Shown one piece after another: positions 1 to 31,831 of a stretch of 31,831 nucleotides of DNA. Each line of letters starts with the position of its first letter. Position 1 is the first letter of the stretch. A program made the translations under genes and the position numbers. Under the pieces are notes generated by a model. It was not told where the DNA came from and made no database searches. It saw only the letters and a program-made list of their open reading frames with translations. The stretch comes from a virus, in the IMG/VR virus record IMGVR_UViG_3300020123_000145, positions 1 to 31,831 of that record. The stretch is one strand, 5' to 3'.

Positions 1-10
1 AGCTGCGGCA

Positions 11-796
11 GTGCATCGGCTCGCGTCCGCTTCTGACCTGCTTGCGCGCGCCAGGAGCGCCGGCGCTGAGAAGGTCATCGTTGCACTGAGCGGCGGCAAG
101 GACTCGCTCGTTTGCCTCGACCTGGCGGTCAAGGCGCTGGGCGCGTCGAACGTCGTCGCCTTCTTCATGTACCTCGTGCCCGGCCTGGCCATCGAGGAAA
201 CACCAGTACGCGCCGCGGCACGGCGCTACGGCATCGAGCTCCTGTTCGTGCCCCATTGGGACCTCGGGCGCATGCTCAAGTACGCCGTGCTGCGGCCGCA
301 CATCATCGGCGCGGAGAAGTGGCGCGAGGTTCGGCTGGCCGACATCGAGCTGCTGGTGCGAAAGCGCACCGGGCTCGACTGGATCGTCTACGGCCACCGA
401 ATGGACGAATCGCTCGAGCGCCGCGGGATGTTGCGCGGCTGCGGCGGGGTCGACGAGAAGCACCGGCGGGTGTACCCGCTCATGCACTGGAAGGGCGCCG
501 ACTCGCTGGCGTACCTGCGCCTGCATCGGATCCCGGTGCCGTCGATGATGGGCGGCGCGCGCAACGCCGGCGTCGAGCTGACACCCGAGTGCCTGCACTT
601 CCTCCGCGAGCACCACCCTGCCGATTATGAGCGCATCCTGTCGGTTCTTCCCCGACGCCGGCGCGGTGCTGTTCCGCGCCGAGAAGTACGGCAAGGCGCT
701 CACAGCTGCCGACCGTGTGGCGCGCGCGAAGAAGACGCAGGGCTCGGTCTCGCCGACATATCGCAGCTGGGCGACGATGATTCGGCGCTGCCATGA
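11..796 (+). CDS. PAPS-reductase-like PP-loop ATPase, C-terminus frameshifted, possibly 5'-partial
   Basis: Phosphoadenosine-phosphosulfate-reductase/PP-loop family protein, which binds ATP and activates a substrate by adenylation, often in sulfur or base-modification chemistry. The PP-loop SGGKDS is at residues 27-32 after a hydrophobic strand, followed by a YGHRMDESLERRG segment (128-139) and a conserved block RRVYPLMHWKGADSLAYLR. The reading frame is open to the window edge and the GTG at 11 has no visible Shine-Dalgarno, so the true start may lie upstream. After residue 213 (about base 650) the frame becomes Arg-rich and unlike the family, while the +1 frame continues as FPDAGAVLFRAEKYGKAL, which looks like the natural continuation. 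The shift point contains CTTCCCCGA. Target unknown; neighbouring ParB-like and zinc-ribbon genes suggest a nucleic-acid role, which is inference. Confidence 0.8.
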   Translation: MHRLASASDLLARARSAGAEKVIVALSGGKDSLVCLDLAVKALGASNVVAFFMYLVPGLAIEETPVRAAARRYGIELLFVPHWDLGRMLKYAVLRPHIIGAEKWREVRLADIELLVRKRTGLDWIVYGHRMDESLERRGMLRGCGGVDEKHRRVYPLMHWKGADSLAYLRLHRIPVPSMMGGARNAGVELTPECLHFLREHHPADYERILSVLPRRRRGAVPRREVRQGAHSCRPCGAREEDAGLGLADISQLGDDDSALP

Positions 797-3023: not shown

Positions 3024-3725
3024 GTGGGCCGCAATGTCCAGATGATCAAGTGCGGCGCGAAATCGCGTCGCAATAACGGCAAGCCTTGTGAGAATTGGGC
3101 GGTCCACGGCGCGAAACGTTGCCGCATGCACGGCGGCACGCATCCGAAGGGCGGCGCGGCGCCGCAGGCGCTGCAGCGGCTCAAGCACGGCCTGTTCGCC
3201 AAGACGTTGACGCCCGATGAAGAGGCGGCGTTTCACGACGCGCTCATGGAGGCGCTCGAGGACCCCACGAAGGCGATGCTCGCGGACGCCCAATTCCTTC
3301 GAGTGAAGGCGGCGACGGTCGCCAAGCGCGCCGACGCGACGGGCATGTACACCGGCAAACAGTCGGCGGTGAAGCGGACCGAGCCGATCATCGATCAGAA
3401 CACCGGGCGGCCGATGTTCTATAGGACCGACGACGGCGAATCGAAGCCGGCTGTCACCGTCACCGAGACCGTCAGCGCCGAGCGCTGCGACGTCATCGGC
3501 CCCGTCTCCGAGCTCCTGATGCGCGCCGCTCGACTGACCGAGGCGAGCGTGATGCTGAAGAAGAAAGCCGGTCTGGTCGGCGACGAGGAAGTGGGCTCTC
3601 TCGACGAGGAGACGATGGCGGACATCTTGCGGCGCGAGTTCAACGACGCCGGCGCGCTGCACCGCGAGGACGACGATGGCCCTGAGAAATCTACGGGGGC
3701 TGGCGGCTCGCGACAAGGAGGGTGA
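3024..3725 (+). CDS. terminase small subunit-like protein
   Basis: 233 residues. The N-terminus has Cys10, Cys22, Cys33 and the MHGGTHPKG motif (HGG at 36-38), a zinc-finger-like arrangement (CGAK ... PC ... CRMHGG) typical of a class of phage small terminases and terminase-associated DNA-binding proteins. The middle and C-terminus are helical, with conserved-looking VSELLMRAARLTEASVML and acidic tail elements. It would recognise phage DNA and regulate the packaging motor. GTG at 3024 has a weak GGTGAT upstream; an in-frame ATG at 3042 is the alternative start. Its 3' end overlaps the large-subunit gene by 50 bases, which supports the pairing. Confidence 0.75.
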   Translation: MGRNVQMIKCGAKSRRNNGKPCENWAVHGAKRCRMHGGTHPKGGAAPQALQRLKHGLFAKTLTPDEEAAFHDALMEALEDPTKAMLADAQFLRVKAATVAKRADATGMYTGKQSAVKRTEPIIDQNTGRPMFYRTDDGESKPAVTVTETVSAERCDVIGPVSELLMRAARLTEASVMLKKKAGLVGDEEVGSLDEETMADILRREFNDAGALHREDDDGPEKSTGAGGSRQGG

Positions 3726-5025
3726 GCGCGAAGCGAAGATCCTTCGCCTCTGGGTCCGGCACTTCCACCCGTACCAACGCGAGTTCATCTTCGACGACTC
3801 GCTGATCTCGCTGTGGAACAAGGCCCGGCAGATCGGCTTCTCGCACGCGATCGCGGGCAGCGCGCTCAAGGACGCGCTCACCCAGCACGACACCAACATC
3901 GTGCTGTCGGCGTCGCAGGAGTTGTCGAGCGAGGTCCTCGACAAGACCAAGGCGCACGCGCGCGCGCTGGCGTCGATGGGTCTCAAGCGCGCGCGGCCGC
4001 GCATCTCGAACGCGACGCGCATCGTCCTGCCGAACAAGGGACGCGTCATCGCGCTGCCGGCCAACCCGCGCACGGCGCGCTCGTTCACGGGCAACGTCTA
4101 CTTCGACGAGTTCGCATACCACGACGACCCCAAGCGCATCTGGGACGCCGCCGCGGCAATGAAGACGCGGAAGACGTCCCAGGGCAAACGAAAGATCCGG
4201 CTCGTCTCGACGCCGAACGGCGCGCAGGGGCTGTTCTACGAATGGTTCACGACGCCGCCGAAGGGCTGGCGTGTCGGCGCCGTCGACATCGACATGGCGA
4301 TCGCGCAGGGCATGCGCGTCGACCTCGATGAGCTGTGGCAGCTCGCCGGCGGCGATGAGCGCATCTTCTCGCAGTGGTATCGCCTCGCGTTCCTTGACGC
4401 GGCGATGCAGTACATCCCGACGGCGATGGCCGATCGTGGTCGCGACTGGAAAGGCAAGATCCCCGACCTGTCGCAGTGCGAGCTCTACGCCGGCTTGGAC
4501 GTGGGGCGCGAGAACGATCTGACGGTGCTGTCGGTGATCGCGGTGTTCAACGAGATGTACGCGTTCGTGCTGCCGTTCATGTCGTGCAAGCGCACCAAGT
4601 TCGCGGCGCAGAAGCAAATGATTCACACGGCGCGCGAGATGTACCGGTGGAACAGCCTGCATGTCGACGCCGGCGGCCTAGGTACGCAACTGGCCGAGGA
4701 GCTCGTCGAGGAATTCGGCGAGGACGAGTGCTTCCCGATTTGGTTCACGCTCGAGGAGAAAGCCGACCTGGCGACGCGCGCGCTGCGCTGGCATCGCGAT
4801 GCCCGGCTGAAATACCCGCGCGGCGAATACGGCCAGCTGCTGCACAAAGAGACGATCTCGGTGCGACGCGTGGTCACCCCGAATGGAAACGTGGTCTACG
4901 ACGCGCCGCGCACATCGAGCGGCCACGGCGATCGCTTCTGGGCGACGGCGCTGGCGCTGCGCGGCGCCGGCGAGCCGCAATCTCCGCTCGGGATGGGGAT
5001 GGATCCGCTGCTGGCGGTGGCGTGA
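3676..5025 (+). CDS. terminase large subunit, Mu gp28-like
   Basis: 449 residues; the DNA-packaging ATPase/nuclease. The P-loop region is KARQIGFS (49-56), the variant Walker A seen in Mu-type terminases rather than a classical GKS/T. Walker B is VYFDEFA (141-147), and the coupling motif is STPNG (178-182). The RNase H-like nuclease domain shows GLDVGREND (Asp275), LHVDAGG (Asp331) and SGHGDRFW (Asp419) as the likely metal-binding acidic residues. Length and motif spacing fit an intact enzyme. It starts inside the small-subunit gene (ATG 3676) and is followed after 7 bases by a small zinc-type gene. The type of packaging (headful or transposition-linked) cannot be settled from this alone. Confidence 0.92.
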   Translation: MALRNLRGLAARDKEGEREAKILRLWVRHFHPYQREFIFDDSLISLWNKARQIGFSHAIAGSALKDALTQHDTNIVLSASQELSSEVLDKTKAHARALASMGLKRARPRISNATRIVLPNKGRVIALPANPRTARSFTGNVYFDEFAYHDDPKRIWDAAAAMKTRKTSQGKRKIRLVSTPNGAQGLFYEWFTTPPKGWRVGAVDIDMAIAQGMRVDLDELWQLAGGDERIFSQWYRLAFLDAAMQYIPTAMADRGRDWKGKIPDLSQCELYAGLDVGRENDLTVLSVIAVFNEMYAFVLPFMSCKRTKFAAQKQMIHTAREMYRWNSLHVDAGGLGTQLAEELVEEFGEDECFPIWFTLEEKADLATRALRWHRDARLKYPRGEYGQLLHKETISVRRVVTPNGNVVYDAPRTSSGHGDRFWATALALRGAGEPQSPLGMGMDPLLAVA

Positions 5026-5748: not shown

Positions 5749-5829
5749 ATGAGGCTTCTTTTCGTCGCGCTGTGCGCGCTTGCGTGCATCGGCTGTGTGT
5801 CCAGGTCGAGTGTCGGCGTCTCGCAATAG
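5749..5829 (+). CDS. lipoprotein signal fragment ended by in-frame TAG
   Basis: ATG 5749 has a good ribosome-binding site (AAGGAG at 5735-5740). It encodes MRLLFVALCALACIGC, a basic n-region, hydrophobic core and a lipobox-like CIGC (Cys16) or ALAC (Cys13), then ten residues to a TAG at 5827-5829. The frame stays open beyond the TAG and runs straight into the Cys-rich ORF ending at 6318, so this looks like the export signal of that protein. The 26-residue peptide could instead be a real short lipopeptide (entericidin-like in size), which I think less likely. Confidence 0.55.
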   Translation: MRLLFVALCALACIGCVSRSSVGVSQ

Positions 5830-5865
5830 GCGATCGACATTGCCGACGGCGGCGCGGATGCGGCG

Positions 5866-6318
5866 ATGGATATGGCAACGGTGTCGGACCTCTCCTTCGT
5901 TTGCCCGGACGGCGCCATTTGCGCGAGCCAGCCCGACGGCGGTTGCGATCCGATTCGCTGGGACACGTCGTGTGGCCCCGGGCTCGTCTGCGCCACGGAT
6001 GGCACGTGCGGCGTCTCGTGCGGCGGAGGAAACGTCGTGTGCAGCGCGCCGATGCTCTGCACGGTCTTCGGCGATGTCTCGCACAATTGCGTCCCGCCGT
6101 GTTCAATGGCTGGTCAGGTCGTCTATCGCCCAGCCCCGCACAACAACTGCGACGCGCGCGCGCTTCTGAAAGAGGAGCCCACCGGCAAATGCTTCGTTCC
6201 GTGCTGGTACGACGAGTGCACTTTGCTGGGCGACAACTTCTGCGGTGAGCCGATGAATCTCACCACGGTAAAAGACCGCAAGCGCCTATACGAAGCCTTC
6301 CAGCGAATCGTGCAGTAA
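5866..6318 (+). pseudogene. Cys-rich secreted domain, separated from its signal by an amber codon
   Basis: 150 residues from the first ATG after the TAG, in the same frame as the signal fragment at 5749. It holds 16 cysteines, with spacing such as CGPGLVC, CGVSCGGG, CVPPC and CFVPCWYDEC, which suggests a disulfide-rich exported protein. The linker between TAG and this ATG (AIDIADGGADAAMD) is Asp/Ala-rich, like lipoprotein linkers. No Shine-Dalgarno precedes 5866, arguing against independent initiation and for readthrough, suppression or a mutated gene (CAG to TAG is one change). It has no phage-structural look and could be host-derived cargo. If read through, the full product would be 189 residues plus the residue inserted at the TAG. 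Confidence 0.6.
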
Positions 6319-6709: not shown

Positions 6710-6996
6710 GCGAGGAGTTGATCCACGGCGTGCCGGCGGTGAACGAGCTCGCCGAGGCGCGCGCGAAGCGCCAGCGGTCGGTGATCAATGACGGCGCCTG
6801 CTTCGCCTTCGCGGCCTACGACTACGACGACGAGGGGATCGGCTTCACCGAAGACAAGGAGAAGCCGATCGTCGTCATCCTCGACAACGAGATGCTGACC
6901 GGGATCGCCATGAACGCGCACGATGCGATCGCGCTCGGCACCGCGCTCATCGACGCCGCGCGCGAGCACATGTTCCCCGGCGAGGTGGAGAAATGA
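6706..6996 (+). CDS. hypothetical protein
   Basis: 96 residues from a GTG overlapping the previous stop. Opens SEELIHGVPAVNELAEARAK and has a central acidic beta region (YDYDDEGIGFTEDKEKP) leading to IVVILDNEMLTGIAMNAHDA, then a C-terminal helix. Unrecognised. ATGA-type overlap (6993) couples it to the deformylase gene. Confidence 0.55.
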   Translation: MSEELIHGVPAVNELAEARAKRQRSVINDGACFAFAAYDYDDEGIGFTEDKEKPIVVILDNEMLTGIAMNAHDAIALGTALIDAAREHMFPGEVEK

Positions 6997-7538
6997 TCCG
7001 CCCGGTGCTGCCGTGGCCGCATCCGTTGCTCGGCCAGAAGGTTCCCGAGTGCACCACATTCGGCGAACCGCTCAAAGAGGTCGCGCGCGACCTGTTCGAT
7101 ACGGTGGCGGCGGCAGGCGGCGTCATGGGGTCGGCGCCGCAGATCATGGCCAAGGCGCGGCTCATCTACATCGCCAGGCAGGTGGCGGGCGAGCCGCTGT
7201 TCATCGCAAATCCGGTGATGCTCGAGCACGGCGAGCTCTTGCAGCACCAGCAGGAGAGCTGCATGTCCTGCCCCGGCATCACGATCGACATCCAGCGCTA
7301 CGCGTCCGTCGTGGTCGCCGGTCGCAACACCAACGGCGACGAGATCACCGTGCGCGCCAACGGGACGCTCGCGCAGGCGCTGCAGCACGAGCTGAATCAC
7401 CTCGACGGAAAGACCATCATCGAGTGCGCCAAGCGCGCGAAGCTCTGGTGGTACCGCGAGAAGATGAAAAAGTACGGCGGCCACCGCGGCAACCTGCTCG
7501 ACTATCGCGAGGGCGGAACGGCGCTCGCGAACGGCTGA
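6993..7538 (+). CDS. def: peptide deformylase
   Basis: 181 residues; removes the N-formyl group from nascent proteins. All three family motifs are present in order. Motif I is GVMGSAPQI (43-51) for GxGLAAPQ, degenerate but keeping APQ. Motif II is ESCMS (88-92) for EGCLS, with metal-ligand Cys90. Motif III is QHELNHLDG (131-139) for HExDHLxG, with His132, Glu133 and His136. Length is normal. Start ATG overlaps the upstream stop. Phage deformylases are known and may keep virion or photosystem-type proteins processed during infection; here the role is unspecified. The substitutions in motifs I and II make full activity uncertain. Confidence 0.88.
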   Translation: MIRPVLPWPHPLLGQKVPECTTFGEPLKEVARDLFDTVAAAGGVMGSAPQIMAKARLIYIARQVAGEPLFIANPVMLEHGELLQHQQESCMSCPGITIDIQRYASVVVAGRNTNGDEITVRANGTLAQALQHELNHLDGKTIIECAKRAKLWWYREKMKKYGGHRGNLLDYREGGTALANG

Positions 7539-7742: not shown

Positions 7743-9623
7743 ATGAAGCTCAAGCTCCTGCGAAAGACGCACTGCGACTACAACGCCGACCAGCTGCAGC
7801 GAAACAGCGACCTATTCAAGGGCGGCGACGAGTTCAAGAAGCGCGTCGCTCGGTACCTCATCAAGAATCAGCAGGAGCCGATCGAGGTCTTCCGTCAGCG
7901 CTGCGAGGCCGCGCACTACGTGAATTATTGCGGCCCTGTCGGGAACTACTTCGCCTCGTGGCTGTTCACGGCGGCGCTCGAATACCGGACCGAGCCGAAA
8001 GAGGTCGACGACTTCTACGCCGAGTTCCGCGAAGACGCCGACGGCAAGGGCACCGACTGGGATCACTGGTTGCGGCATCGCTTTATCGAGTGCCTCATCA
8101 ATCAGTGCACATTCTGGCGGATCGAGATGCCCACGACGCCGCCCGACGGCGCCGACCCTGATTCGCTCGCCGAGTGGAAGCGCCAGGGCAGGGGCCGCGC
8201 GACCGTCGTTCCGATGCCGGCCGAGACGATCACCAATTGGAAGAAGAAGCCCGACGGCAAGTCCTACGAGTGGATCGTCGAGCACACGAAGGTCGAGCAG
8301 TTCGAGGAATTCGGCGACGAGATCGAGACCGTCACCGAGACCTGGACGAAGTACAGCGCCGATGAGCCGGCTCGGCGCTGGCAGGCCGTGTACCTCAAGA
8401 CGCAGCCGCCCGGTCCCGACGACGACATCGCCGAGATCGACGGTCCGGAAGAGACCGTCGACGACGTCATCTGCATGCATGTGCCGAGCGAGCTCTACGT
8501 CATGGGGCTCATCGGGTCGGCCCAGCTCGAGAGCTTCCGCAAGCGTTGCGCGCTGTCGTGGTCGATCGATCGCACCTGCTACGCGATGCCCTGCTTCCAT
8601 CTGAAGGACAAGAGGCATCCGCCCAAGATGGGCGCCGGCTACTACCTGATGATCGGGGAGAAGGAGCAGGTCACCTATCCCGCCCCGACCGCGGCGCCGT
8701 ACGACACGATCAAGAGCTACGCGAGCGAGGTCAAGGACGAGATCCACCGCGTCGCGCAGCAAATGGCTCGCGGCGTCGAGAACAACGCGGCCGCGATCGG
8801 TCGCTCGGGTGAGTCGAAGCAGGCGGACGACGTGGCGACCGAGATCGTGCTCAGCGCCTACGGCAAGCACGTGCGCGACCCCGTCGAGCGCACCATGGAT
8901 CGCATCGCCAAGCGCCGCGGCGAGCAGATCGAGTGGACCGTCACCGGCATGTCCAGCTACCACGTCGTCGACATGGCGACGATGACCGAGATGGTCATGA
9001 CTTCCGAGACGATCCCCATCCCGTCCAAGACGCGCAAGCAGGAGCTCTACAAGCGCCTCACGTGGACGCAGATGCCGGACCTCGACGACGCGAAGAAGGA
9101 TGCGATCTCGAAGGAGATCGAGGCCGGCGTCACCGACGAAACGATGCAGGCGCAGACGGCGCCTCCTCCGCCGCCGGGCGCGCCGGGGGCACCGAAGGCG
9201 ACCGACGACGCGAACAACATGGACGACGGCGCCGCTGGCACCGAGGCGGTCGACGCGGTCTATCACCAGCTCGCCGACGACTTCGAGGAAAACGCGATCG
9301 CGTGGATCAAGAAAGCCCAATGGGACGGGCCCGTGGACGTGGCGCTCGACGAAATCGACTTCGATGGCAAGAGCGCCTGGCGCGCCGCTGGGCACAAGGC
9401 GAAGGTCGCGAAGTTCGCGAAGAAGATCGGCGCCGGCGACAAGAAGCCGATCATCCTGGTGAAGCCTCCGAAGGGCGGAAAGTACAAGGTCGCGGACGGC
9501 CATCACCGCGCCCTGGCCTATCTGCAGCTCAAGCAGCCGCCGCGCGCGTACGTCGCCACCGTGGACGAAGAAGGCTTCTCTGCAGCCATGCAGATGCACG
9601 CCGCGCAGAAGCATCTCTCTTGA
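7743..9623 (+). CDS. portal protein with C-terminal ParB-like domain
   Basis: 626 residues. Residues 1-~465 are a portal: the N-terminal FKKRVARYLIKN...VNYCGPVGNYFASWLFTAALEY region, a central clip/stem region, the IGRSGESKQADDVATEIVL segment (352-370) typical of portal crown/wing helices, and SKTRKQELYKRLTW (428-441). A Pro/Ala/Gly linker (471-486) follows. Residues ~510-615 form a ParB/sulfiredoxin-like fold: PVDVALDEIDFDGK, KPIILVKPPKGGKY, ADGHHRALAYL (584-594), ending in VATVDEEGF. The portal forms the dodecameric DNA gate at the capsid vertex. The ParB-like tail is an extra that resembles domains fused to portal or MuF proteins in other phages, where it is often thought to be injected or toxin-like; that role here is inference. 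Confidence 0.88.
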   Translation: MKLKLLRKTHCDYNADQLQRNSDLFKGGDEFKKRVARYLIKNQQEPIEVFRQRCEAAHYVNYCGPVGNYFASWLFTAALEYRTEPKEVDDFYAEFREDADGKGTDWDHWLRHRFIECLINQCTFWRIEMPTTPPDGADPDSLAEWKRQGRGRATVVPMPAETITNWKKKPDGKSYEWIVEHTKVEQFEEFGDEIETVTETWTKYSADEPARRWQAVYLKTQPPGPDDDIAEIDGPEETVDDVICMHVPSELYVMGLIGSAQLESFRKRCALSWSIDRTCYAMPCFHLKDKRHPPKMGAGYYLMIGEKEQVTYPAPTAAPYDTIKSYASEVKDEIHRVAQQMARGVENNAAAIGRSGESKQADDVATEIVLSAYGKHVRDPVERTMDRIAKRRGEQIEWTVTGMSSYHVVDMATMTEMVMTSETIPIPSKTRKQELYKRLTWTQMPDLDDAKKDAISKEIEAGVTDETMQAQTAPPPPPGAPGAPKATDDANNMDDGAAGTEAVDAVYHQLADDFEENAIAWIKKAQWDGPVDVALDEIDFDGKSAWRAAGHKAKVAKFAKKIGAGDKKPIILVKPPKGGKYKVADGHHRALAYLQLKQPPRAYVATVDEEGFSAAMQMHAAQKHLS

Positions 9624-10269: not shown

Positions 10270-11220
10270 ATGGATCGCTCCGCGGCGCGCGCGCGGAATG
10301 CCTCGAAGCGCCAGCAGCGTCTCAACGTACAGCGGATGCTCGCAGAGCACTCGCACCAGGCGGCCAATCTCTCGCGGCCCGTCATGGCGAAGATGCTGCC
10401 CGTGCTGGCGCAGGCGCAGCGCGAAACGGCCCGCGATCTGAAGGCGTGGTTGCGGCGCGCGCCGAACGCCGCCAACCGCTACACGGCCTATCAGCACAGC
10501 GCAGCTCTGCTGTCGCTGAAATCGGCCCTGGATACCATTCGGCGCATCGCCCCCGAGCTCCAGGGCGCGCTCGACGATATGGGCCGGGACGCAGGAATAC
10601 TGGCCGGCAATCATCTGGTCAATGAGGTCGGTCGACTCTCGTCGGTGTTCGACGAGGTAGAGGTCCGGCTGCCATTCAACCTTTCGTCGCTGATGGCGAC
10701 CGGAGAAGCATTCTTCAGCCCGAGGTTTCAGGCGACGGCGGCGCGCTATGCGGGCGCCGTCGGCGATGACATCCGCCGCGAGCTCGCGATCTCCATCGTG
10801 CGCGGCGAGAGCATCAATCAGCTGGTCGAGCGATTGGTGCAGCTCGGCGGCCCCAGTGGAGTGGTCGCACTTCGCGGTATCGCCGGCGACCCGGGCGCGG
10901 CTACCGAGTACATCTCCGAGGGTCTGTTCCGCCGCTATCGATGGTGGGCGGAGCGTATCGCGCGGACCGAGGTCGCCTACGCCTACGGCTATCAGGCGCA
11001 CCAGGGATTCTGGCAGGCAAAGAAACTGCTGCCTGATCTGCAGCGCCGATGGGACTCATCGGTCGACGCTCGCACCTGTCTCGAGTGCCGAGCGCTCGAC
11101 GGTGTTGTCGTCGATCTTGGTCAGATGTTCCCCGGCGGCATTGACGGCGCGCCGGCGCATCCATGCTGTCGCTGCCGCGTCGGAGCCTGGCGCGCGCACT
11201 GGTCCGAGTACTTCAGCTAG
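10270..11220 (+). CDS. MuF-like minor head protein (SPP1 gp7 / Mu gpF family)
   Basis: 316 residues. The C-terminal head-morphogenesis domain has ARTEVAYAYGYQAHQGF (231-247), then RRWDSSVDARTCLECRALDG (259-278) and APAHPCCRCRV (294-304), where Cys270, Cys273, His297 and Cys299/300/302 may bind metal. The N-terminus is basic and helical. The family is a minor capsid component, sometimes co-ejected with DNA. ATG 10270 starts two bases after the preceding stop. Position after portal fits. Confidence 0.85.
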   Translation: MDRSAARARNASKRQQRLNVQRMLAEHSHQAANLSRPVMAKMLPVLAQAQRETARDLKAWLRRAPNAANRYTAYQHSAALLSLKSALDTIRRIAPELQGALDDMGRDAGILAGNHLVNEVGRLSSVFDEVEVRLPFNLSSLMATGEAFFSPRFQATAARYAGAVGDDIRRELAISIVRGESINQLVERLVQLGGPSGVVALRGIAGDPGAATEYISEGLFRRYRWWAERIARTEVAYAYGYQAHQGFWQAKKLLPDLQRRWDSSVDARTCLECRALDGVVVDLGQMFPGGIDGAPAHPCCRCRVGAWRAHWSEYFS

Positions 11221-12138: not shown

Positions 12139-13176
12139 GTGGCCGACAATCCGCAGACTCTCACTGCGGTCCTTTCCGCGCTGGCGCAAAATTTCCGCCC
12201 GCGCGTCGTCAGGACCATCAACCGCCGGAGCGTTCTCTTGAAGACGCTCCCGGTCCAGCCCGGCGAGGGCAAGAACATCGCCGTCGACGTCGAGTTCGAC
12301 GGCATGGTCGTCGAGAATTTCAACGACGGCGACGACGTGACGAACTACGGTTCGGACGCGGTGGCGCCGGCGACGCTGGCGTGGGCGCTCTATCGCGCCA
12401 ACTTCCGCGTCGGCGATCTGGCTCGCGCGGCCGCCAAGACGTCGCGGAGCCCGCAGGGCCTGATGGCGCTGTGGGGCCGCAACCTGGTGAACGCGTCGGC
12501 GAAGCTGTCGTCGAACATCAACCTCGGCGGCTACTCCGGCAACGGCACGAGCAACGCGATCACCGGATTCGACACCGCGCTGCTCAACAACAACACGTAT
12601 ATGGGCATCGATCGCAGCCAGGCCGGCAACGCCGGCTTCCGTGGCAACGTGATCGACCCCGGCGTGCTCACGCAGGTGGCGCTCGACGACATCCGCGGCG
12701 ACATCAACAACACGATCTACACCGCGTGCGGCGAGCAACCGGACTTCGCCTTCTGCTCGCCGACGATCTTCAACATGCTGGGCGGGCGCTTCACGCAGCT
12801 GCGTCGGTTCCCCGACGAAGTTCGCGAGATCAACACCACGCGCGGCAAGGTCACGCTCGATGCCTCGGTGGGCGCGCTCGAGTTCGAGGGCTGCGTCTTC
12901 ATCAAGGACAAGGACGCGACCGCCAACCAGATCTACTACGTCAACTCGAACTACGTTCACTGGGAGTACCTCCCCCAGCAGGACGAGGGCGAGCTGACGC
13001 AGAACGAGCGCGCCGCGGACCTCGACGATGGCTACGGCCCCGCGCCGCTCGGCATGCGCGTCAAGATGCTGGCGGAGACCGGCGCCAGCAAGAAGGCCAC
13101 GGCGATGGTGTTCCTCAACCTCGTCGTCGAGAAGCCGAACACCTGCGGCCTGCGCAAGAACGTCGCGAACACCTGA
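12139..13176 (+). CDS. major capsid protein
   Basis: 345 residues from GTG 12139 behind a strong AAGGAGG (12129-12135 region). The sequence has a Mu/HK97-type major-head look: an N-arm, then NFRPRVVRTINRRSVLLKTL, GKNIAVDVEFDGMVVENF, WALYRANFRVGDLARAAAK, a P-domain-like FCSPTIFNMLGG, and TRGKVTLDASVGALEFEGCV. It forms the icosahedral shell. It follows the scaffold gene and is trailed by a large hairpin. No protease cleavage site can be assigned. Confidence 0.82.
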   Translation: MADNPQTLTAVLSALAQNFRPRVVRTINRRSVLLKTLPVQPGEGKNIAVDVEFDGMVVENFNDGDDVTNYGSDAVAPATLAWALYRANFRVGDLARAAAKTSRSPQGLMALWGRNLVNASAKLSSNINLGGYSGNGTSNAITGFDTALLNNNTYMGIDRSQAGNAGFRGNVIDPGVLTQVALDDIRGDINNTIYTACGEQPDFAFCSPTIFNMLGGRFTQLRRFPDEVREINTTRGKVTLDASVGALEFEGCVFIKDKDATANQIYYVNSNYVHWEYLPQQDEGELTQNERAADLDDGYGPAPLGMRVKMLAETGASKKATAMVFLNLVVEKPNTCGLRKNVANT

Positions 13177-17202: not shown

Positions 17203-19053
17203 ATGGGTGTTTTCGTCTCGTCGGCATCGGCCGCCGGCAAGCCTGGCGTTTTCGCCATTCTCGTCTCGCCGCCGCGCACCATTCGCGGCATCAGCCTCGG
17301 CTACGTCGGCTACGTCGCGCAGTTCGACGCCGGCCCGTCGAACGTGGGCTACCTGCCGCAGGACGGCGACGACCTGGTGCAGACCTACGAGCCCAAGGGC
17401 GTGCCCCGCAAGAAGTCGGGCTGGTACGGCCTCATCGGCCAGCTGTCGGCGCCGTGGTTCATCGTGCGCGTCAACGGCGGCAGCGCCGGCATCCCGGCAC
17501 CGAGCGCGCTGACGGCGAACGTGACCGGCACGCCCGGCGCTGCCACGGTGTCGTGGGTCATCACGGCCCTGAACGCCAGCGGCGAGACCGTCGCCTCGCA
17601 GACCATCACCGTCACGACCGCGAACGCGACGCTGAGCTCGTCTCCGGTGCAGCTGGCGTGGGCGGCGGTTCCGGGCGCCACGGGCTACAGCGTCTATCGC
17701 ACCGTCGGCGGCCCCTCGCAGGGCCGCATCGCGACCAACCAGGCCGGCGTCACGCTGACGGACAACGGCATCGCCGGCGGCGGCCAGACCGCGCCGGCGA
17801 CGAACGGGACCGGCTACGTCTCGTCGCAGCTCGAGCTTCTGGGCACGGGCGGAAGCGTCGTCTTCACCGCGAAGTCGCCGGGCGTGTGGGCGAACCAGGT
17901 GAGCGTACAGACCCTGGCCGCGTCCGACGGCGTGGCCAACCACCGCGACATCGTGGTCACGCTGACCGACCCCATCACGAAGCAGACGCAGGAGACGTAT
18001 CGAAACGTCGCGCTCACGCAGAACATGGCGGCGCTCCTGCTCAACTCGCGCCTGCTCGCGTCGATCACGTGGACGGGCACGATCACGGTCTGGCCGACGA
18101 ACGGAACGAGCAACATGACGGGCGGCTCCGACGGAGCGACGCCGATCGCCGCCGACTACACCGCGGCCATCGACCAGCTGGCCCTCTCGGGCAACGTGCG
18201 CGTGGTCGTGACCGACGACTGCGGCGATTCTATTCGCGGCGCCGTGCAGGCGTACGTGCAGACGCACTGCACGAACCTGTACAACCGCGTCGGGCACCTG
18301 CACGGCATCAAGACGAACACGCAGGCACAGGTGCTCACCGACAAGGCGAACTACACCAACGAGACCTGCACCTACTACGGGGCCTGGGTCCAGGTCTACG
18401 ACGACTCGGGAACGACGCTCGTCGACGTGCCGCTGTCGATCTTCGGCGCGGTGATCCGCGCGAACATCCCGGTGCACTGGTCGATCGCCAACCACGACAC
18501 ACAGGCGACGAAGTACCTGCAGAACATCAAGGGCGTCTCGACGGCGACGACGTTCTCGGTGTCGTCGGACACCGTGCAGACCACGATGACGACGAACCAG
18601 GTCGTCATCCCGATCCAGGGCGTGGGGCCGCAGCCCGGCACGACGGGCCCGTGGCAGCTGCTGCACGGGCGCAGCTGCAACCTGAACAGCGGCTACATCT
18701 GGGAAGTCACGACGTGGTATCGCATCTACCTCGTCACCGCGCTCGCGCCGCAGCTCGACCCCTACGTCAACGGTCCGAACGATCTGGCCACGGGCCAGGA
18801 GATTCAGGCGATCATCAACGCCTGGCTCGAGGGCGAGGTCGCGCTCAAGCACCTGTCGACGTCGCTGGGCCCCGACGGCGTCACGATCCTGCCGCCATAC
18901 TCGACGGACATCTTCGGCGTCAACACCGGCACCTCGATGGCCAACGGCGACTTCTACATCAGCATCGACGGCCACACGCCCGGCGTGCGCGAGCGCCTGA
19001 TCCTCATGCTCAACGTCGGCGAGACCGTGAGCGTCCGCCGTCAGTCGAACTAA
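17203..19053 (+). CDS. contractile tail sheath protein with inserted Ig/FN3-like module
   Basis: 616 residues, intact. The N-terminal sheath part (VFAILVSPPRTIRGISLGYV; PWFIVRV at 84-90) is separated from the next sheath block (VVFTAKSPGVWANQVSVQTL, 219-238) by an Ig-like module at ~98-203 that resembles those at 9644 and 13304. The C-terminus (YIWEVTTWYRIYLVTALAPQ, VRERLILMLNV) matches contractile sheath domains. The sheath contracts to drive the tube through the envelope. GGAGG precedes ATG 17203. The insertion point lies between two sheath subdomains and so probably leaves contraction intact. Confidence 0.9.
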   Translation: MGVFVSSASAAGKPGVFAILVSPPRTIRGISLGYVGYVAQFDAGPSNVGYLPQDGDDLVQTYEPKGVPRKKSGWYGLIGQLSAPWFIVRVNGGSAGIPAPSALTANVTGTPGAATVSWVITALNASGETVASQTITVTTANATLSSSPVQLAWAAVPGATGYSVYRTVGGPSQGRIATNQAGVTLTDNGIAGGGQTAPATNGTGYVSSQLELLGTGGSVVFTAKSPGVWANQVSVQTLAASDGVANHRDIVVTLTDPITKQTQETYRNVALTQNMAALLLNSRLLASITWTGTITVWPTNGTSNMTGGSDGATPIAADYTAAIDQLALSGNVRVVVTDDCGDSIRGAVQAYVQTHCTNLYNRVGHLHGIKTNTQAQVLTDKANYTNETCTYYGAWVQVYDDSGTTLVDVPLSIFGAVIRANIPVHWSIANHDTQATKYLQNIKGVSTATTFSVSSDTVQTTMTTNQVVIPIQGVGPQPGTTGPWQLLHGRSCNLNSGYIWEVTTWYRIYLVTALAPQLDPYVNGPNDLATGQEIQAIINAWLEGEVALKHLSTSLGPDGVTILPPYSTDIFGVNTGTSMANGDFYISIDGHTPGVRERLILMLNVGETVSVRRQSN

Positions 19054-20122: not shown

Positions 20123-20352
20123 TCGGCGTGCTGATGGTCTACGGACATCAGCAATGGTCGGCGCTCAAGAAGTGCGATTGGGGCACGCTGTCGTTTCTCT
20201 ATCACTCGGTGGCGCTCGTGAAGAATCGCGAGAACGAAACCGCCGAGCAGCACAAGCGCAGAGCCATCGCGGAAGCCGAGGCCGATCGAAAACGGGCCGA
20301 GGACGAGCGCAAGGGTAGGCGCGCCCCATGGACCGGAGTCCGATATGGCTGA
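20119..20352 (+). CDS. tail assembly chaperone, -1 frame extension (T-like)
   Basis: 77-residue ORF in the -1 frame, opening at a GTG that overlaps the upstream stop (GTGA), but more likely expressed as a fusion through the slip site at 20083. Contains VIGVLMVYGHQQWSALKKCD, followed by a charged helix rich in Glu/Lys/Arg and ending PWTGVRYG, as in T-half chaperones. Its 3' end overlaps the tape measure start by eight bases. Confidence 0.7.
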   Translation: MIGVLMVYGHQQWSALKKCDWGTLSFLYHSVALVKNRENETAEQHKRRAIAEAEADRKRAEDERKGRRAPWTGVRYG

Positions 20353-21961
20353 CGCCGATACGATCTACCGCGTCCTCACGGTCTACGACGCGGACACGTC
20401 GAAGGGCGACGCCAATCTCAGCCGTTTCGCCAGCACGCTCGACCACGTCGCGCACCTCGCCGGCGAGGTCAAAGACTTCATCGGCGGGATGATCGAGCGC
20501 GTGATCGAGGTCGGCTCCGCCGCCGAGCAGGCGAAGATCAGCATCGCGGGCCTCTTCTCGGCGACGGGGTTGACGTTCGGCAACAACTTCAACACCGCGC
20601 TCGAAATGTCGTCCGAGATCCTGAAGACGATGCGCAAGGACGCCGCGGCGCTCCCGGGCACGTTCGAAGATTTGACGAACATCTTCCAGCGCGCGATCCC
20701 CGGCGGCGCGAACGCGGGGAAGTCGGCGAACGACATCGAGCACATGTCGTCGCAGATGATGGCTGTCGGCAAGGCGTTCGGCATGAACGCCGATTTCATC
20801 GGGCGCGAATTCGCCGAGATGATGGAGGGCCGCGCGAGCGCGCGCGTGACGCTGTTCGCGAAGATGCGCCAGTTCATGGGGCCGGACATGGACGCGCAGA
20901 AGTTCAATGCGCTCGCCGCGCCCGACAAGTGGGAGCGCATTCAGCAGGCGCTGTCGAAGTTCAACCCGATGATCCAGGAATACGCGACCACCTGGGACGC
21001 GGTTTCGACGACGGCCGAGAGCTATCTGACGAACATCATCCGCGTCGGTTCCGCCGGCGTGTTCGATGCGCTCAAGCAGGACCTGGCCGATCTGAATGGT
21101 TGGTACGAACGCAACGAGACGCAGATCCTCGCCGTCTCGCGCGCGATCTTCGACGACCTCGGCGGTGCCATCAAGTTCGTGATCGAGATGGTCCGCGGCG
21201 GCGTCGAGACGGTGCTCGAATTCATGCAGGACTTCGGCCTCGCGAGCGATTCGGCGGACGCCGTGCAGAAGCTCGTGAGCGCGCTCGAGATCGCGGCCGT
21301 GGTCATCGGCGCCGTTACGGCGCTGACGGTCACATGGAAGATCGCGCAGTGGGCGCTCAACTTCGCGCTGATCGCCAACCCCATCGGCCTGGCGGTGATC
21401 GCCATCGGCGCGCTCGCCGCCGGCATCACGATTCTGATCGCGAAGATGCAGGAGTACCTCGACGTTTGGGAGATCTTCCGCACCGACGCCGGCGTGCGCA
21501 CGATGGCAAAGGCGGCGGGGTTCGGCTGGATCGTCGGCGACATGACCAACGACGAGGCGATGCATGCGCACGTGCGCGCGCTCGGGACGTACGCCGGCCA
21601 CCGCGAGGCGCTGCGGCGCGAGCAGGGCGACGACGGCACGATGGCGCAGATCAAGCACATGTTCGGCATCACGCCGACGGCGGTGTCGCACGGAAACATG
21701 ATGAATCCGACGACGGCGATGCAGTGGTTCATGCCGGGGATGGATTTGTCGAAGGCGGGCATGCCGGACGCCAAGGCGCTTCTCGACCGCGCCGGCAAGC
21801 CGGTCACGGTGCACAACACGACGATCGGCAGCATCAACCTCTACAACAACATCTACGACGCCGAGGACCCGGCGCGCGTGATCGTGCACCTGACGTCGAA
21901 GGCCGTGCGCGACGGCGTGGAGCGCCCGCACCAGAGCCCCAGCGTCTTCGTGGGCCGCTGA
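20345..21961 (+). CDS. tape measure protein
   Basis: 538 residues, ATG 20345. Long, mostly helical; hydrophobic transmembrane-like stretch ~314-366 with the recurrent tape-measure motif IANPIGLAVIAIGALAAGI (343-361). The C-terminus (HNTTIGSINLYNNIYDAEDP) is beta-rich. Sets tail length; at roughly 1.5 angstroms per residue from family knowledge, a tail near 80 nm would be expected, which is inference. Shorter than many siphovirus tape measures, but normal for a short contractile tail. Confidence 0.85.
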   Translation: MADADTIYRVLTVYDADTSKGDANLSRFASTLDHVAHLAGEVKDFIGGMIERVIEVGSAAEQAKISIAGLFSATGLTFGNNFNTALEMSSEILKTMRKDAAALPGTFEDLTNIFQRAIPGGANAGKSANDIEHMSSQMMAVGKAFGMNADFIGREFAEMMEGRASARVTLFAKMRQFMGPDMDAQKFNALAAPDKWERIQQALSKFNPMIQEYATTWDAVSTTAESYLTNIIRVGSAGVFDALKQDLADLNGWYERNETQILAVSRAIFDDLGGAIKFVIEMVRGGVETVLEFMQDFGLASDSADAVQKLVSALEIAAVVIGAVTALTVTWKIAQWALNFALIANPIGLAVIAIGALAAGITILIAKMQEYLDVWEIFRTDAGVRTMAKAAGFGWIVGDMTNDEAMHAHVRALGTYAGHREALRREQGDDGTMAQIKHMFGITPTAVSHGNMMNPTTAMQWFMPGMDLSKAGMPDAKALLDRAGKPVTVHNTTIGSINLYNNIYDAEDPARVIVHLTSKAVRDGVERPHQSPSVFVGR

Positions 21962-26462: not shown

Positions 26463-27653
26463 ATGAACCTCCCGACGGTGCAGCAGGTCGCGCAATTCAT
26501 CGACAATGCGATGCGCCAGGCCATCGATCCCAATGGCACGGGCGCATATGACAATTCAGCTGGATCCGATAATGCCGCGTTGATCTCCGTTTTGACCCAG
26601 GTGGCGATGGGGACGTACAATTACGCCGCCGATCGAAAGCGCGCCTCGGTTCCGTCGGCGGCGACGGGCAGCGATCTCGACGACATTCTGCGCGACGATT
26701 ACCTCGACGGACGCAAGGGCACGAACGCGGCGACCACGACGCTCTATCTGAAGCGCACGGCGGGCGGTATGCCTGCGACCTCCATTCCCGCGGGGACGCG
26801 CTTCGGTTCGCAGAACACCGGGACGACGCAGGCGGTGCAATTCGAAGCTACGACGACCGTCGCCGCTGCGTCCGCCCTGGATCGCGTTCCCGTTCCGGTC
26901 GTATGTCTGATTGAGGGCTCGGTCGGAAACGTCCAGCTGGTGGCGATCAACCAGATTCTTGACCAGCTTGGAGATCCGAATTGGTTCCTGTACGTTCCAG
27001 CCCCGGGCGATCCGGTTCTCGGCTCGAAGCCTGCGCCCGATACGGTTTCCGGCGGGGCCGACGAGGAGACCGACGATCAAGCCAAGGCGCGGGTGTTGGT
27101 TCGGCCCGCGCGGGTGGCCAAGGGTACGGCGGCGGGCGTCTATAAGGGCACCACTGACGTTGGTGGCATCGCGACCGCCGTTCCTGTCGAGGTCGGCGAT
27201 GGAACCGGCATCGTCTATGCGGGCGACATCAACTTCAACCTGTCGTCGGCACAGCAGCAGGCGGTGGCGACGAACCTGGAAGATTGGCGCCCGTTCGGCG
27301 TTCCTGTCGCCGCCCGGGCGATGAATGTCATCCCGGTGCAGGTGACGCTTCAGATCTACATGCAGCGGCCGATCAAGAACTACAACATCAACCAGCTGCT
27401 CGCGAACGCGCAGGCGGCAGTGCAGCACTACTTCGACGTCGAGCGAAAGCGCCCCGACGAGTACTTCATCAATGCGATCCAGACGGCGGCGGGGAAATCG
27501 AATCCCGAGACCCAAACCGTCATCGTGCTCTCGCCGGCTACGGATCAGAAGCGGCCGGCCGACAGCACCTACGGATCGATCATCGCGTTGACTCGGTACA
27601 CCGTCTCGGCGGCGACCATCTCGATTCAATTCTTTGATCCGCAGACGTCCTAA
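26463..27653 (+). CDS. baseplate J-like protein
   Basis: 396 residues. Features of the J family: DLDDILRDDYLDGRKGTNAA near the N-terminus, SIPAGTRFGSQNTG, AINQILDQLGDP, the GGADEETDDQAKARVLVRPA repeat-type motif (~199-218), then ARVAKGTAAGVYKGTTDVGG and a C-terminal YTVSAATISIQFFDP. Forms part of the baseplate wedge. Starts one base after the preceding stop (ATG 26463). Confidence 0.85.
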   Translation: MNLPTVQQVAQFIDNAMRQAIDPNGTGAYDNSAGSDNAALISVLTQVAMGTYNYAADRKRASVPSAATGSDLDDILRDDYLDGRKGTNAATTTLYLKRTAGGMPATSIPAGTRFGSQNTGTTQAVQFEATTTVAAASALDRVPVPVVCLIEGSVGNVQLVAINQILDQLGDPNWFLYVPAPGDPVLGSKPAPDTVSGGADEETDDQAKARVLVRPARVAKGTAAGVYKGTTDVGGIATAVPVEVGDGTGIVYAGDINFNLSSAQQQAVATNLEDWRPFGVPVAARAMNVIPVQVTLQIYMQRPIKNYNINQLLANAQAAVQHYFDVERKRPDEYFINAIQTAAGKSNPETQTVIVLSPATDQKRPADSTYGSIIALTRYTVSAATISIQFFDPQTS

Positions 27654-29070: not shown

Positions 29071-30237
29071 ATGAGCAATTCCGATCGCGTTCTCAACGTG
29101 GGCGCCTCGGCGCGCGCCTCGGATGTCCAGGCCATCGCCGATGTTGCTGCGCTCGCCGACGATCGCGCGCTCGAGATCTTGGTGACGCCGGGGGCGACGC
29201 CGAAGAAGGTCATCCCGCTGAGCGAGGAAACCGCATCGCTCAATCCTCGGCTTCTGGTGGTCGGGCAAGACATCGATGGCGGCGTCGCGAATGCCAAGGT
29301 GCGCGTTCGCCCCTGCTTCTATGACGCCGGCGTTTCCGGCGCGCCGTACACGATCGGGCTGTCGACGAGCTCGAAGGCGAATCAGGACTCGCCGGCGTTC
29401 GGCAACAACTCCTCGGGGTCGACTCGATACGATCTCCTGTACGCGACGATCAGCTACGGCACGCCGACTACGGTAAGCGTTCGTCAGAAGCCAACGGCGG
29501 GAACTGCGCCGGTGTCGGCCCTGCTCACGGTTCAGAACGACATGCTGATCACGCTCGGAATCGTTCCGAACGTCGCCTCCGGCAATCCACTCGCATCGCT
29601 GCCGGCGGACTCTGGATCCGGGAAAGCCGCCGTCTACAACTTCGGCCTGGCCATGGTGGCGATCGCCAACGGCTTCTCCGGCGGCGCGATCAATCAGGCG
29701 AGCATCACGCCGCTCTGGAACGGCGGGTGGATCCAGCGCCAGCGCATTCAGAATAACCTGACGGCTTCGTTGTATGCGGGCGCGGCGAACGAGAAGCCGA
29801 CGACCCCGGTCACGGACCGATTCGGCGCGTTTCGGAAAATGTTCGCCCACATGAAGGTGCTGTCGACGACGCCGACGTCGAGCGCGAGCGGGGTCATCGT
29901 CGACAATTCGATCGATTGGCGTCGCCGTCTGATTCTCGCGTTCATTACCTACATGGGAAGCGCCGGAACCAGCGGCGCCAATGCGAGCCTCGAAACCGCG
30001 AACGCCCTCAACCTGGCAGGCGCCAATCCGACGACGATCCAGAAAGTGTTTTCGGGCGCCGGTTCGGCGGCGACGCTGTTCAATATCTCGTACAGCGGCG
30101 GAGCCGTAAATTTCTCCGTCGATACGAGCGGCGTGATTCGCCTCTTCAAGTCGGGGACCGTGCCGGCGGACGGAACGAACGGAGATCTGGTCTCGATCGA
30201 TCTTTTCTACAGCGACCAGTTCACGGCGGGGATGTAA
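29071..30237 (+). CDS. tail fibre / receptor-binding-like protein
   Basis: 388 residues. Ala/Gly/Ser/Thr-rich, with SNSDRVLNVGASARASDVQA at the N-terminus and beta-type low-complexity repeats throughout (YTIGLSTSSKANQDSPAFGN; FSGAGSAATLFNISYSGG). Last + strand gene of the structural run. No chaperone gene for fibre assembly follows; the next gene is on the opposite strand with only 4 bases between. Receptor recognition is inferred from position and composition. Confidence 0.65.
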   Translation: MSNSDRVLNVGASARASDVQAIADVAALADDRALEILVTPGATPKKVIPLSEETASLNPRLLVVGQDIDGGVANAKVRVRPCFYDAGVSGAPYTIGLSTSSKANQDSPAFGNNSSGSTRYDLLYATISYGTPTTVSVRQKPTAGTAPVSALLTVQNDMLITLGIVPNVASGNPLASLPADSGSGKAAVYNFGLAMVAIANGFSGGAINQASITPLWNGGWIQRQRIQNNLTASLYAGAANEKPTTPVTDRFGAFRKMFAHMKVLSTTPTSSASGVIVDNSIDWRRRLILAFITYMGSAGTSGANASLETANALNLAGANPTTIQKVFSGAGSAATLFNISYSGGAVNFSVDTSGVIRLFKSGTVPADGTNGDLVSIDLFYSDQFTAGM

Positions 30238-30241
30238 GGGT

Positions 30242-30748
30242 TCACTTCGAGGCGAACGAGATCCACGCATCTGCGACGAAACGCTTCGTTTGCCCAGGCT
30301 CGTCGAGATTGTCCGTGGACAGGTTGCCGTCGAAGCGGATGTGCAAGTTGGGCTCTGGGGTCAGCCAGGAAATCGAACCGACGAAGACCTGTCCCGGGTC
30401 AAAGCCTCTCTGTTTGTCGCGATAACTCCAGGACGTCGCTCCTTTCGGCGGAAAGGAAAACGTCGACGGGAAACTACCTGGCGGAGTCCCCCAAAACGCG
30501 AGGTTCACTCCCTCGGATCGGCCACAGGCCGCATCCATGCAAAGCGCAGTGGCCGACGACGCAACAGCAAAGCGAACATCGGCTTCGCTGAACGACTGAC
30601 AGGTGCCGTCATTGGCGTACGAGCGGATCTCGTAGTCGTACGGTGCGCTCACGTGGAGCGTGCATACGGGCTCTACGGCTGGAACACCCGCCGCCGCGCA
30701 TCCCGCCGCCGTTGCAATAGCCGATAGAGCCAGAAGCACGTTCTTCAT
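30242..30748 (-). CDS. lipoprotein-like exported protein (opposite-strand moron candidate)
   Basis: 168 residues on the minus strand. N-terminus MKNVLLALSAIATAAGC gives a basic n-region, hydrophobic core and AAGC lipobox-like site (Cys17); four other Cys (29, 50, 70, 75) could form disulfides. The body is beta-rich (YEIRSYANDGTC; HIRFDGNLSTDN). The start at 30748 has AGGAGG about 12 bases upstream. It is the only opposite-strand gene in the window, convergent with the fibre gene, with local GC of about 55% in one line I counted. This is the usual profile of a moron expressed from its own promoter. Confidence 0.7.
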   Translation of the reverse strand: MKNVLLALSAIATAAGCAAAGVPAVEPVCTLHVSAPYDYEIRSYANDGTCQSFSEADVRFAVASSATALCMDAACGRSEGVNLAFWGTPPGSFPSTFSFPPKGATSWSYRDKQRGFDPGQVFVGSISWLTPEPNLHIRFDGNLSTDNLDEPGQTKRFVADAWISFASK

Positions 30749-30782
30749 CTGCGTTGTTCGCCTCCTCTCCAGTCAACAAGCG

Positions 30783-30813
30783 TACCCCTCCCTCTATTTC
30801 CGGATCAACTGCG
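30783..30813 (-). promoter_or_regulatory. weak promoter candidate for the opposite-strand gene
   Basis: On the minus strand, TTGATC and TACGCT are separated by 18 bases and lie upstream of the AGGAGG ribosome-binding site of the gene ending 30748. Only 4/6 and 3/6 matches to sigma70-type boxes, so low confidence. The 87-base gap 30749-30835 holds nothing else identifiable except CAGGAG before ATG 30836. Confidence 0.25.
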
Positions 30814-30835
30814 GCATTTCGCCACAGGAGCATGC

Positions 30836-31354
30836 ATGCGGAAGCTATCTGCATTCTTCGCGCTCGTCGTCGCGATGCTGGCCCAGTCAGCGCGCGCCGA
30901 TCAGCCGGTCACCGCGCGCTGGCTGCGCCTGGGCACGGCCTTCTCGTCGAACCAATGCCCGAGCTCGCAGATCTGCCTGTGGACCAAGAACGACGGGACG
31001 CTGCACTTCGGCTATCTCGGCACTGACTCCGCGCTCGGCAACGGCGGCGGCACGGTGCCTCTCACCGACGCCGCCACGATCAACACCGACGCATCACTGG
31101 GCGCTGTCTTCACCGTCACGTTGGCCGGCAATCGCACGCTCGCCAATCCCACGAACCTGAGCCCCGGCGGCACGTACATGTGGATCATCACGCAAGACGG
31201 CACGGGCTCGCGCACGCTGACCTACGGCACCAATTTCAAATGGCCGAGTGGCACGGCGCCGACGCTGACGACCGCGGCCGGCTCCGTCGACATGGTCACC
31301 GCCGTATATGACGGCACGAAGCTCCGGGCCGTCTTCAATGGTGACTTCCGATGA
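30836..31354 (+). CDS. signal-peptide protein with tail-fibre-like C-terminal domain
   Basis: 172 residues. Residues 1-21 form a type I signal peptide (MRKLSAFFALVVAMLAQSAR then A), with an ARA/DQ cleavage-like site after Ala21. The C-terminal ~90 residues (TLAGNRTLANPTNLSPGG; IITQDGTGSRTLTYGTNFKW; TAAGSVDMVTAVYDGTKLRA) strongly resemble the repeat domain at the ends of phage tail fibre proteins. A virion-type domain behind an export signal is unexpected. CAGGAG is 5 bases upstream of the ATG. ATGA overlap with the next gene implies co-translation. Confidence 0.75.
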   Translation: MRKLSAFFALVVAMLAQSARADQPVTARWLRLGTAFSSNQCPSSQICLWTKNDGTLHFGYLGTDSALGNGGGTVPLTDAATINTDASLGAVFTVTLAGNRTLANPTNLSPGGTYMWIITQDGTGSRTLTYGTNFKWPSGTAPTLTTAAGSVDMVTAVYDGTKLRAVFNGDFR

Positions 31355-31831
31355 AGCGCGCCGTTCTCTTTCTCGCGCTTCTTTCGGCGTGCAGCAGCCA
31401 ATCGTGCAGCGTCATCCCGGTCGGTTTCTTTGGCAGCCACGGCGCCAACACGCAGCTCAATCTCGACTTCTCGTCGCCGTCCCTGCCGGCGGGCGCGATC
31501 GCCACGCGCACCGGCCAGAACGTCTATGCGCAGACGGGGACGAACGCCGTCCAGCTGGTCACGACCGCCGACGTGCCCGAGAACCGCGGCACCTCGACGG
31601 GATGGGGGCACTGGACGTGGCGCACCTCGACGGCCGAGATCGCCGCGCCGAACAATTTCGCCTCGGTCTGGACCATCGCGACCGGCAACGGCGTCCGCAC
31701 GGCCGCCGGCACCGTCGGGCCAGACGGGTCCACCAACGGCACCCTCATCTACGACGTCAGCCCCGACGATCCGGCGAAGCTGACATACGCCGGCGGAACG
31801 GCGACGACGAACTTGGTCATTCAGGCGAGCG
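31351..31831 (+). CDS. lipoprotein with phage structural-like domain, 3'-partial
   Basis: 160 codons visible; the frame remains open to the window edge. MKRAVLFLALLSAC carries a textbook LSAC lipobox (Cys14) after a basic n-region, followed by CSSQSC. The region after ~35 (NTQLNLDFSSPSLPAGAIAT, ARTGQNVYAQTG-type) resembles the N-terminal part of phage minor structural proteins with DFxxPSLPAG. It overlaps the preceding gene by ATGA. C-terminus is outside the window. Confidence 0.65.
   Translation, partial: MKRAVLFLALLSACSSQSCSVIPVGFFGSHGANTQLNLDFSSPSLPAGAIATRTGQNVYAQTGTNAVQLVTTADVPENRGTSTGWGHWTWRTSTAEIAAPNNFASVWTIATGNGVRTAAGTVGPDGSTNGTLIYDVSPDDPAKLTYAGGTATTNLVIQAS

What the first reader, a model, noticed from the sequence alone, without database searches (positions are those of the whole stretch)
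30836..31831. Signal-peptide and lipobox proteins carrying tail-fibre/virion-like domains
Seen: two coupled genes start with a type I signal (30836) and an LSAC lipobox (31351) yet continue as sequences like phage fibre ends (IITQDGTGSRTLTYGTNFKW) and minor structural proteins (LDFSSPSLPAG). Virion proteins are not normally exported before lysis. Inference: phage-derived receptor-binding-like domains shown on the host surface, perhaps as decoys, receptor blocks, or envelope-anchored fibres captured on release. With the lipoprotein at 30242 and the split lipoprotein at 5749, this may be a surface-display set; I regard it as the best candidate for a new system.
Basis: partly seen in the sequence, partly recalled or inferred. 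Interest (0 to 1): 0.8.

Follow-up and report, generated by a model that had tools for sequence, protein, structure and literature searches.

The report
Exported phage fibre-tip protein plus lipoproteins
A tailed phage carries, beside its tail-fibre site, a small protein that joins a bacterial export signal to a phage fibre tip, next to two lipoproteins; it may be used to coat the host's own surface and keep other phages off, but that has not been tested.

Summary
The observation largely holds. ORF 30836-31354 has a good Shine-Dalgarno site, a textbook signal peptide (MRKLSAFFALVVAMLAQSARA|DQ) and, from residue ~71, a genuine phage fibre-end module (PHROG 1e-8, 107 IMG/VR relatives, confident fold matching many viral fibre proteins). 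Among 148 distinct module proteins with a readable N-terminus, only this one has a signal by my rule. ORF 31351 (cut by the contig end) has a lipobox; its 'minor structural protein' likeness found no database support. The minus-strand gene at 30242 is a predicted lipoprotein. In two relatives (51.5 and 60.7 kb records, both with integrases) a different, MopE-motif lipoprotein sits at the same place and strand, followed by fibre-type genes without signals. The relative with the closest terminase (L173) carries another signal-peptide protein in its head operon. So: a positionally conserved lipoprotein at the fibre locus, plus an apparently rare exported fibre tip. Best mechanism (inferred): receptor masking / superinfection exclusion, in the manner of T5 Llp but using a fibre tip. 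Main rivals: a lysogenic-conversion adhesin (compare Bdellovibrio MAT fibres), a virion protein, or an end-of-contig accident. The 'surface-display set' is plausible, not shown.

The parts
29071..30237 (+). Last gene of the tail operon (388 aa)
   Evidence: Homologues at the corresponding place in G387/G388 (34% identity) and G394 (E 4e-33)
30242..30748 (-). Predicted lipoprotein (168 aa, MKNVLLALSAIATAAGC), the only minus-strand gene I recognise in the window; position and strand shared with lipoproteins of relatives
   Evidence: relatives; no sequence homology to them
30749..30835 (.). 87-base divergent intergenic region, presumed to hold both promoters (inferred)
   Evidence: no sigma-70-type match found
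30836..31354 (+). SP-fibre gene: 172 aa, signal peptide + about 50-aa linker with two Cys + fibre-end module
30836..30898 (+). Signal peptide, residues 1-21, predicted cut ARA|DQ
   Evidence: sequence; own rule and shuffles
31046..31351 (+). Fibre-end module, residues 71-172
31351..31831 (+). Lipobox gene, cut by the contig end; start overlaps the previous stop (ATGA)
   Evidence: no homologue
31381..31392 (+). Lipobox LSAC, residues 11-14
   Evidence: sequence

Best explanation
These are envelope-targeted accessory ('moron'-like) genes at the fibre locus of a probably temperate tailed phage. Shown from sequence: a complete signal peptide on a fibre-end module; a coupled downstream lipobox gene; a divergent lipoprotein gene whose place and strand recur in relatives. 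Inferred: the SP-fibre is sent by Sec to the periplasm or surface, its tip binds the envelope structure that the phage family uses as receptor, and the lipoproteins are anchored in the membrane; together or separately they mask or jam the receptor, so that the infected or lysogenic cell and its debris do not adsorb further phage (superinfection exclusion).
For: Signals in three adjacent genes and in none of 31 other window genes tested. Module identity by PHROG, alignment and fold; it lies within 25 aa of the C-terminus in 141 of 148 module proteins, the end expected to face the receptor, and only the window copy has a signal. A minus-strand lipoprotein directly behind the tail-end gene in window, G387/G388 and G394, encoded against the late operon. 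Both longer relatives carry integrases. Precedent: T5 Llp is encoded next to the receptor-binding protein pb5, lipoproteins behind gpJ in other phages are likely exclusion proteins, and purified pb5 added to cells blocks T5 by itself (PMC9586334). Even numbers of cysteines outside the lipobox in 30836 (2) and 30242 (4) would fit an oxidising compartment, a weak point.
Against: No functional test. Relatives have fibre-type genes without signals after the lipoprotein, so the exported fibre is not conserved. 31351 is incomplete and without homologues. The window lipoprotein is not alignable with the relatives' MopE-motif lipoproteins, so only position is shared. Nothing shows surface exposure rather than a periplasmic location.
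Confidence: 0.38

Rival explanations
1. Lysogenic-conversion adhesin: the prophage gives its host an exported fibre-tip adhesin for attachment to other cells, prey or surfaces, comparable in principle to the surface MAT fibres of Bdellovibrio.
For: Phage-fibre-like adhesins with signal peptides exist in a predatory bacterium and are surface-displayed (PMC10769870). Relatives have integrases and MopE-motif lipoproteins, which from general knowledge suggest a Myxococcota-like host, a group with predators.
Against: The protein is small (151 aa mature) and has no MAT-like ~130-aa N-terminal domain or long shaft to project it. The host is only inferred.
Confidence: 0.22
2. Virion protein: the gene at the fibre locus still encodes a short tail or decoration protein; the hydrophobic N-terminus is uncleaved, or serves attachment, or export is incidental.
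For: Position matches the fibre cassette of relatives; small module proteins without a signal are common in phages, e.g. 131-134 aa.
Against: Complete n-, h- and c-regions with an AxA site, and a lipobox on the coupled gene; 147 other module proteins lack any such N-terminus.
Confidence: 0.2
3. Accident: a recent fusion of a signal-peptide gene with a fibre end, or a misassembly in the last kilobase, with no function.
For: Seen only once; the end of a linear metagenomic contig; no reads available to check.
Against: Open frame with proper SD, GC3 0.86 and 0.90 like the phage genes, coupling of the two genes, and synteny up to 30242 with relatives.
Confidence: 0.15
4. Spanin-like lysis pair (inner-membrane protein plus outer-membrane lipoprotein).
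For: A signal-peptide gene overlapping a lipoprotein gene resembles Rz/Rz1 gene order.
Against: 30836 is a beta fibre fold with no coiled coil predicted and its hydrophobic start ends in a cleavage site; 31351 is at least 160 aa.
Confidence: 0.03

Closest known systems
C-terminal fibre-end module of tailed-phage fibres and minor tail proteins (PHROG 9017, 4549, 7760; e.g. Caulobacter phage S2B gp10, cyanophage PSS2 fiber protein, Streptomyces phage Kromp gp21)
   Same: Sequence (about 42-71% identity over the module), fold and C-terminal position
   Different: All others examined start without a signal peptide
T5 Llp and Cor-type superinfection-exclusion lipoproteins
   Same: Phage lipoprotein gene next to tail-end / receptor-binding genes (30242, and the lipoproteins of G387 and G394)
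   Different: No sequence similarity found; larger (168-253 aa); MopE motif in the relatives; no receptor known; the exported fibre tip has no counterpart in the T5 system as described in PMC9586334
MAT (mosaic adhesive trimer) surface fibres of Bdellovibrio bacteriovorus
   Same: Phage-fibre-like tip on an exported protein
   Different: Phage-encoded here, far smaller, no ~130-aa N-terminal domain, no long trimeric shaft

Membership tests
Phage fibre-end module (tail-fibre PHROGs) | Significant profile match and C-terminal position | tested here: met
Phage fibre-end module (tail-fibre PHROGs) | Fold of known fibre proteins | tested here: met
   rmsd 1.1-1.7 A over about 100 residues in several viral models; phage spikes in the PDB with modest TM-scores
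Phage fibre-end module (tail-fibre PHROGs) | Protein is part of the virion | not testable with these tools
   needs virion proteomics
Llp/Cor-type superinfection-exclusion lipoproteins | Lipobox signal on a phage gene next to tail-tip / receptor-binding genes | tested here: met
   30242 and the same slot in G387 and G394
Llp/Cor-type superinfection-exclusion lipoproteins | Sequence membership in a described family | tested here: not met
   no PHROG, Pfam, NCBIfam or isolate-phage match for 30242; so not filed as a member
Llp/Cor-type superinfection-exclusion lipoproteins | Blocks adsorption by binding the receptor | not testable with these tools
   needs experiment
MAT superfamily | Signal peptide | tested here: met
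   (own rule, not SignalP)
MAT superfamily | Conserved ~130-aa beta-rich domain after the signal, and a long trimeric shaft | tested here: not met
   only about 50 low-confidence residues lie between signal and module; so not a member
Rz/Rz1-type spanins | Membrane-anchored coiled-coil i-spanin plus o-spanin lipoprotein | tested here: not met
   beta fibre fold; the only helix in the model is the signal

The most novel reading that the evidence does not exclude
A phage lineage runs an envelope programme at its fibre locus: it exports a copy of a receptor-binding fibre tip, with lipoproteins, so that the infected or lysogenic cell is masked by the phage's own adhesin. Receptor masking by an exported fibre tip, rather than by a small inhibitor lipoprotein, would be a distinct exclusion strategy.
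Probability: 0.25. Interest if true: 0.75.

Novelty: new variant of a known kind. Interest (0 to 1): 0.5.

Why it matters
Exclusion lipoproteins beside receptor-binding genes are described mainly from coliphages (PMC9586334). A lipoprotein kept at the same place in an uncultured, probably temperate phage group, plus an exported fibre tip, would suggest that the strategy is broader and can reuse the phage's own adhesin. It also marks a small, testable protein for finding the receptor of an uncultured phage.

Tried and rejected
Downstream start without signal: no start with a convincing SD before the module. Chance signal: about 0.8% per gene by shuffling, three adjacent. Wider occurrence of signal + module: none among 147 other readable distinct proteins from viral contigs, isolate phages and prophages of the Pseudomonadota genomes searched. 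Signal-peptide half alone in viral contigs: nothing. Homology of 30242 to the relatives' lipoproteins: not significant. Homology of 31351 to the relative's tail protein L209:6172-7383: not significant. The L173 signal-peptide protein: no profile or phage homologue; a 23% genome match (L241) was inspected and judged spurious. Single-sequence fold of 30836 was useless (pLDDT 36). Sigma-70-type promoter in the divergent region: none found. Spanin reading rejected. Papers on signal-peptide virion proteins: nothing closer than the Bdellovibrio MAT work and a phage endolysin with a signal peptide.

Full report
WHAT THE WINDOW IS. The window is a whole linear virus record, 65.6% GC, covering the late region of a tailed phage: large terminase 3676-5025 and portal 7743-9623, Mu-F-like head gene 10270-11220, major head protein 12139-13176 and tape-measure-like 20345-21961, baseplate-J-like 26463-27653, tail-end gene 29071-30237. 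I read it as contractile-tailed from the baseplate genes and gene order; no sheath family match was obtained for 17203-19053.

THE OBSERVATION. ORF 30836-31354 starts at ATG with ACAGGAG 5 nt upstream. Residues 1-21 are a complete signal peptide; residues 71-172 are a fibre-end module. ORF 31351 overlaps its stop (ATGA), has a lipobox (LSAC14) and is cut by the contig end. By a simple rule of my own (not SignalP), 30242(-), 30836 and 31351 score as exported and none of the 31 other genes tested does; residue shuffles score in 35-43 of 5000 trials each. The rule is crude. The rate of such starts in flanking viral ORFs (5 of 1274, two of them from this window) is a rough background only, since that ORF set was mechanical.

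THE MODULE IS A REAL PHAGE FIBRE END. It matches tail-fibre PHROGs (best 1.2e-8), 107 viral contigs and 16 isolate-phage records, many annotated as fibre or minor tail protein. In nine isolate proteins read, it is at the extreme C-terminus and none has a signal. With an alignment of 64 sequences the module folds with pLDDT mostly above 90. Foldseek finds 267 viral matches at E<=1e-3, several at rmsd 1.1-1.7 A over about 100 residues, a number of them named tail fibre, and phage spike proteins in the PDB (one at E<=1e-3, TM-scores modest, partly because the N-terminal third is poorly modelled). Over all loci fetched, 164 distinct module ORFs were seen, 148 with a readable N-terminus, 141 with the module within 25 aa of the C-terminus, and only the window protein has a signal.

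THE SECOND PROTEIN. For 31351 every search failed.

RELATIVES AND SYNTENY. Terminase searches found L173 (53%), L174/L195 (50%) and L213 (48%). The records of the last three, G387 (51.5 kb), G388 and G394 (60.7 kb), contain homologues of the tail-end gene. In G387/G388 the gene directly behind it, on the opposite strand, is a predicted lipoprotein (L209:4108-4869; MRIIWGLVAACAAGGC...), and in G394 likewise (L219:2373-3047; MRSLILLLALALAAC...). These two are homologous (33%, 2e-11) and carry the MopE metal-binding motif. The window's 30242 lipoprotein occupies the same place and strand but is not alignable with them. Behind the lipoprotein the relatives carry fibre- or tail-type genes without signals. 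So the lipoprotein position is conserved while its content turns over, and the window differs in having exported proteins next to it. G387 and G388 give the same ORFs here and should count as one. Both G387 and G394 have tyrosine integrases, so the group is probably temperate. The MopE motif and Cys-rich lipoproteins suggest a Myxococcota-like host from general knowledge; the host was not tested.

A SECOND EXPORTED PROTEIN. L173, the closest terminase relative, has a 202-aa protein (L173:3517-4125) with a clear signal peptide (MSLLRITLVLVALCGIARA|Q), a good SD, and a start overlapping the portal stop, between the portal and Mu-F-like genes. It has no detectable homologue, so calling it fibre-like would be a guess. 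My notebook entry calls it fibre-like; that wording is too strong. It does show that a signal peptide inside a structural operon is not confined to the window in this group.

MECHANISM. Shown: signals, module, conserved lipoprotein position. Inferred: export by Sec, binding of the tip to the envelope, receptor masking. The precedent is T5, where the exclusion lipoprotein Llp is encoded beside the receptor-binding protein pb5, and purified pb5 added to cells itself blocks infection; lipoproteins behind gpJ in other phages are likely exclusion proteins (PMC9586334). The alternative, an exported fibre tip as an adhesin, has precedent in the Bdellovibrio MAT proteins (PMC10769870). A virion role is not excluded. 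No promoter of the scanned type was found in the 87-base divergent region, which says little at this GC content.

LIMITS. One genome with the signal + module arrangement; the last gene is incomplete; signals were called with a home-made rule; the survey of module proteins is limited to close and moderately close relatives; Myxococcota genomes were out of reach; the 5749 lipoprotein with its in-frame TAG was not pursued.

VERDICT. Observation partly confirmed (signals and first module yes, second domain no); interpretation partly supported. New variant of a known kind, with moderate interest that would rise if export and receptor masking were shown.

Noticed in passing
L173:3517-4125 (+): 202-aa signal-peptide protein coupled to the portal gene inside the head operon of the closest terminase relative; no homologues found.
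   Followed up: partly
L209:4108-4869 (-) and L219:2373-3047 (-): Homologous MopE-motif lipoproteins in two relatives at the same place and strand as window 30242, while the window copy is unrelated in sequence: a slot with turnover of content.
   Followed up: yes
window 5749-6318 (+): Cys-rich lipoprotein-type gene (MRLLFVALCALACIGC...) with an in-frame TAG at codon 27; decay, read error or recoding not resolved.
   Followed up: no
window 7743-9623 (+): Portal protein carries a C-terminal ParB-like stretch (PHROG 1033, 1e-6) that the shorter L173 portal (478 aa) appears to lack.
   Followed up: no
window 6993-7538 (+): Phage-encoded peptide deformylase (Pfam 7e-32).
   Followed up: no
window 2-796 (+): PAPS-reductase-family gene at the start of the contig.
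   Followed up: no
L219:6388-6993 (+): Another signal-bearing, lipobox-like protein downstream of the fibre gene in G394 (MKHLRAFVLFLACLIATTPAC...), possibly lysis-related; no PHROG match.
   Followed up: no
window 30945-31028 (+): Linker of the SP-fibre (NQCPSSQICLWTKNDGTLHFGYL) weakly resembles the start of peptidase-inhibitor family I36 (E 0.0056, below cut-off), a family I know as secreted.
   Followed up: no
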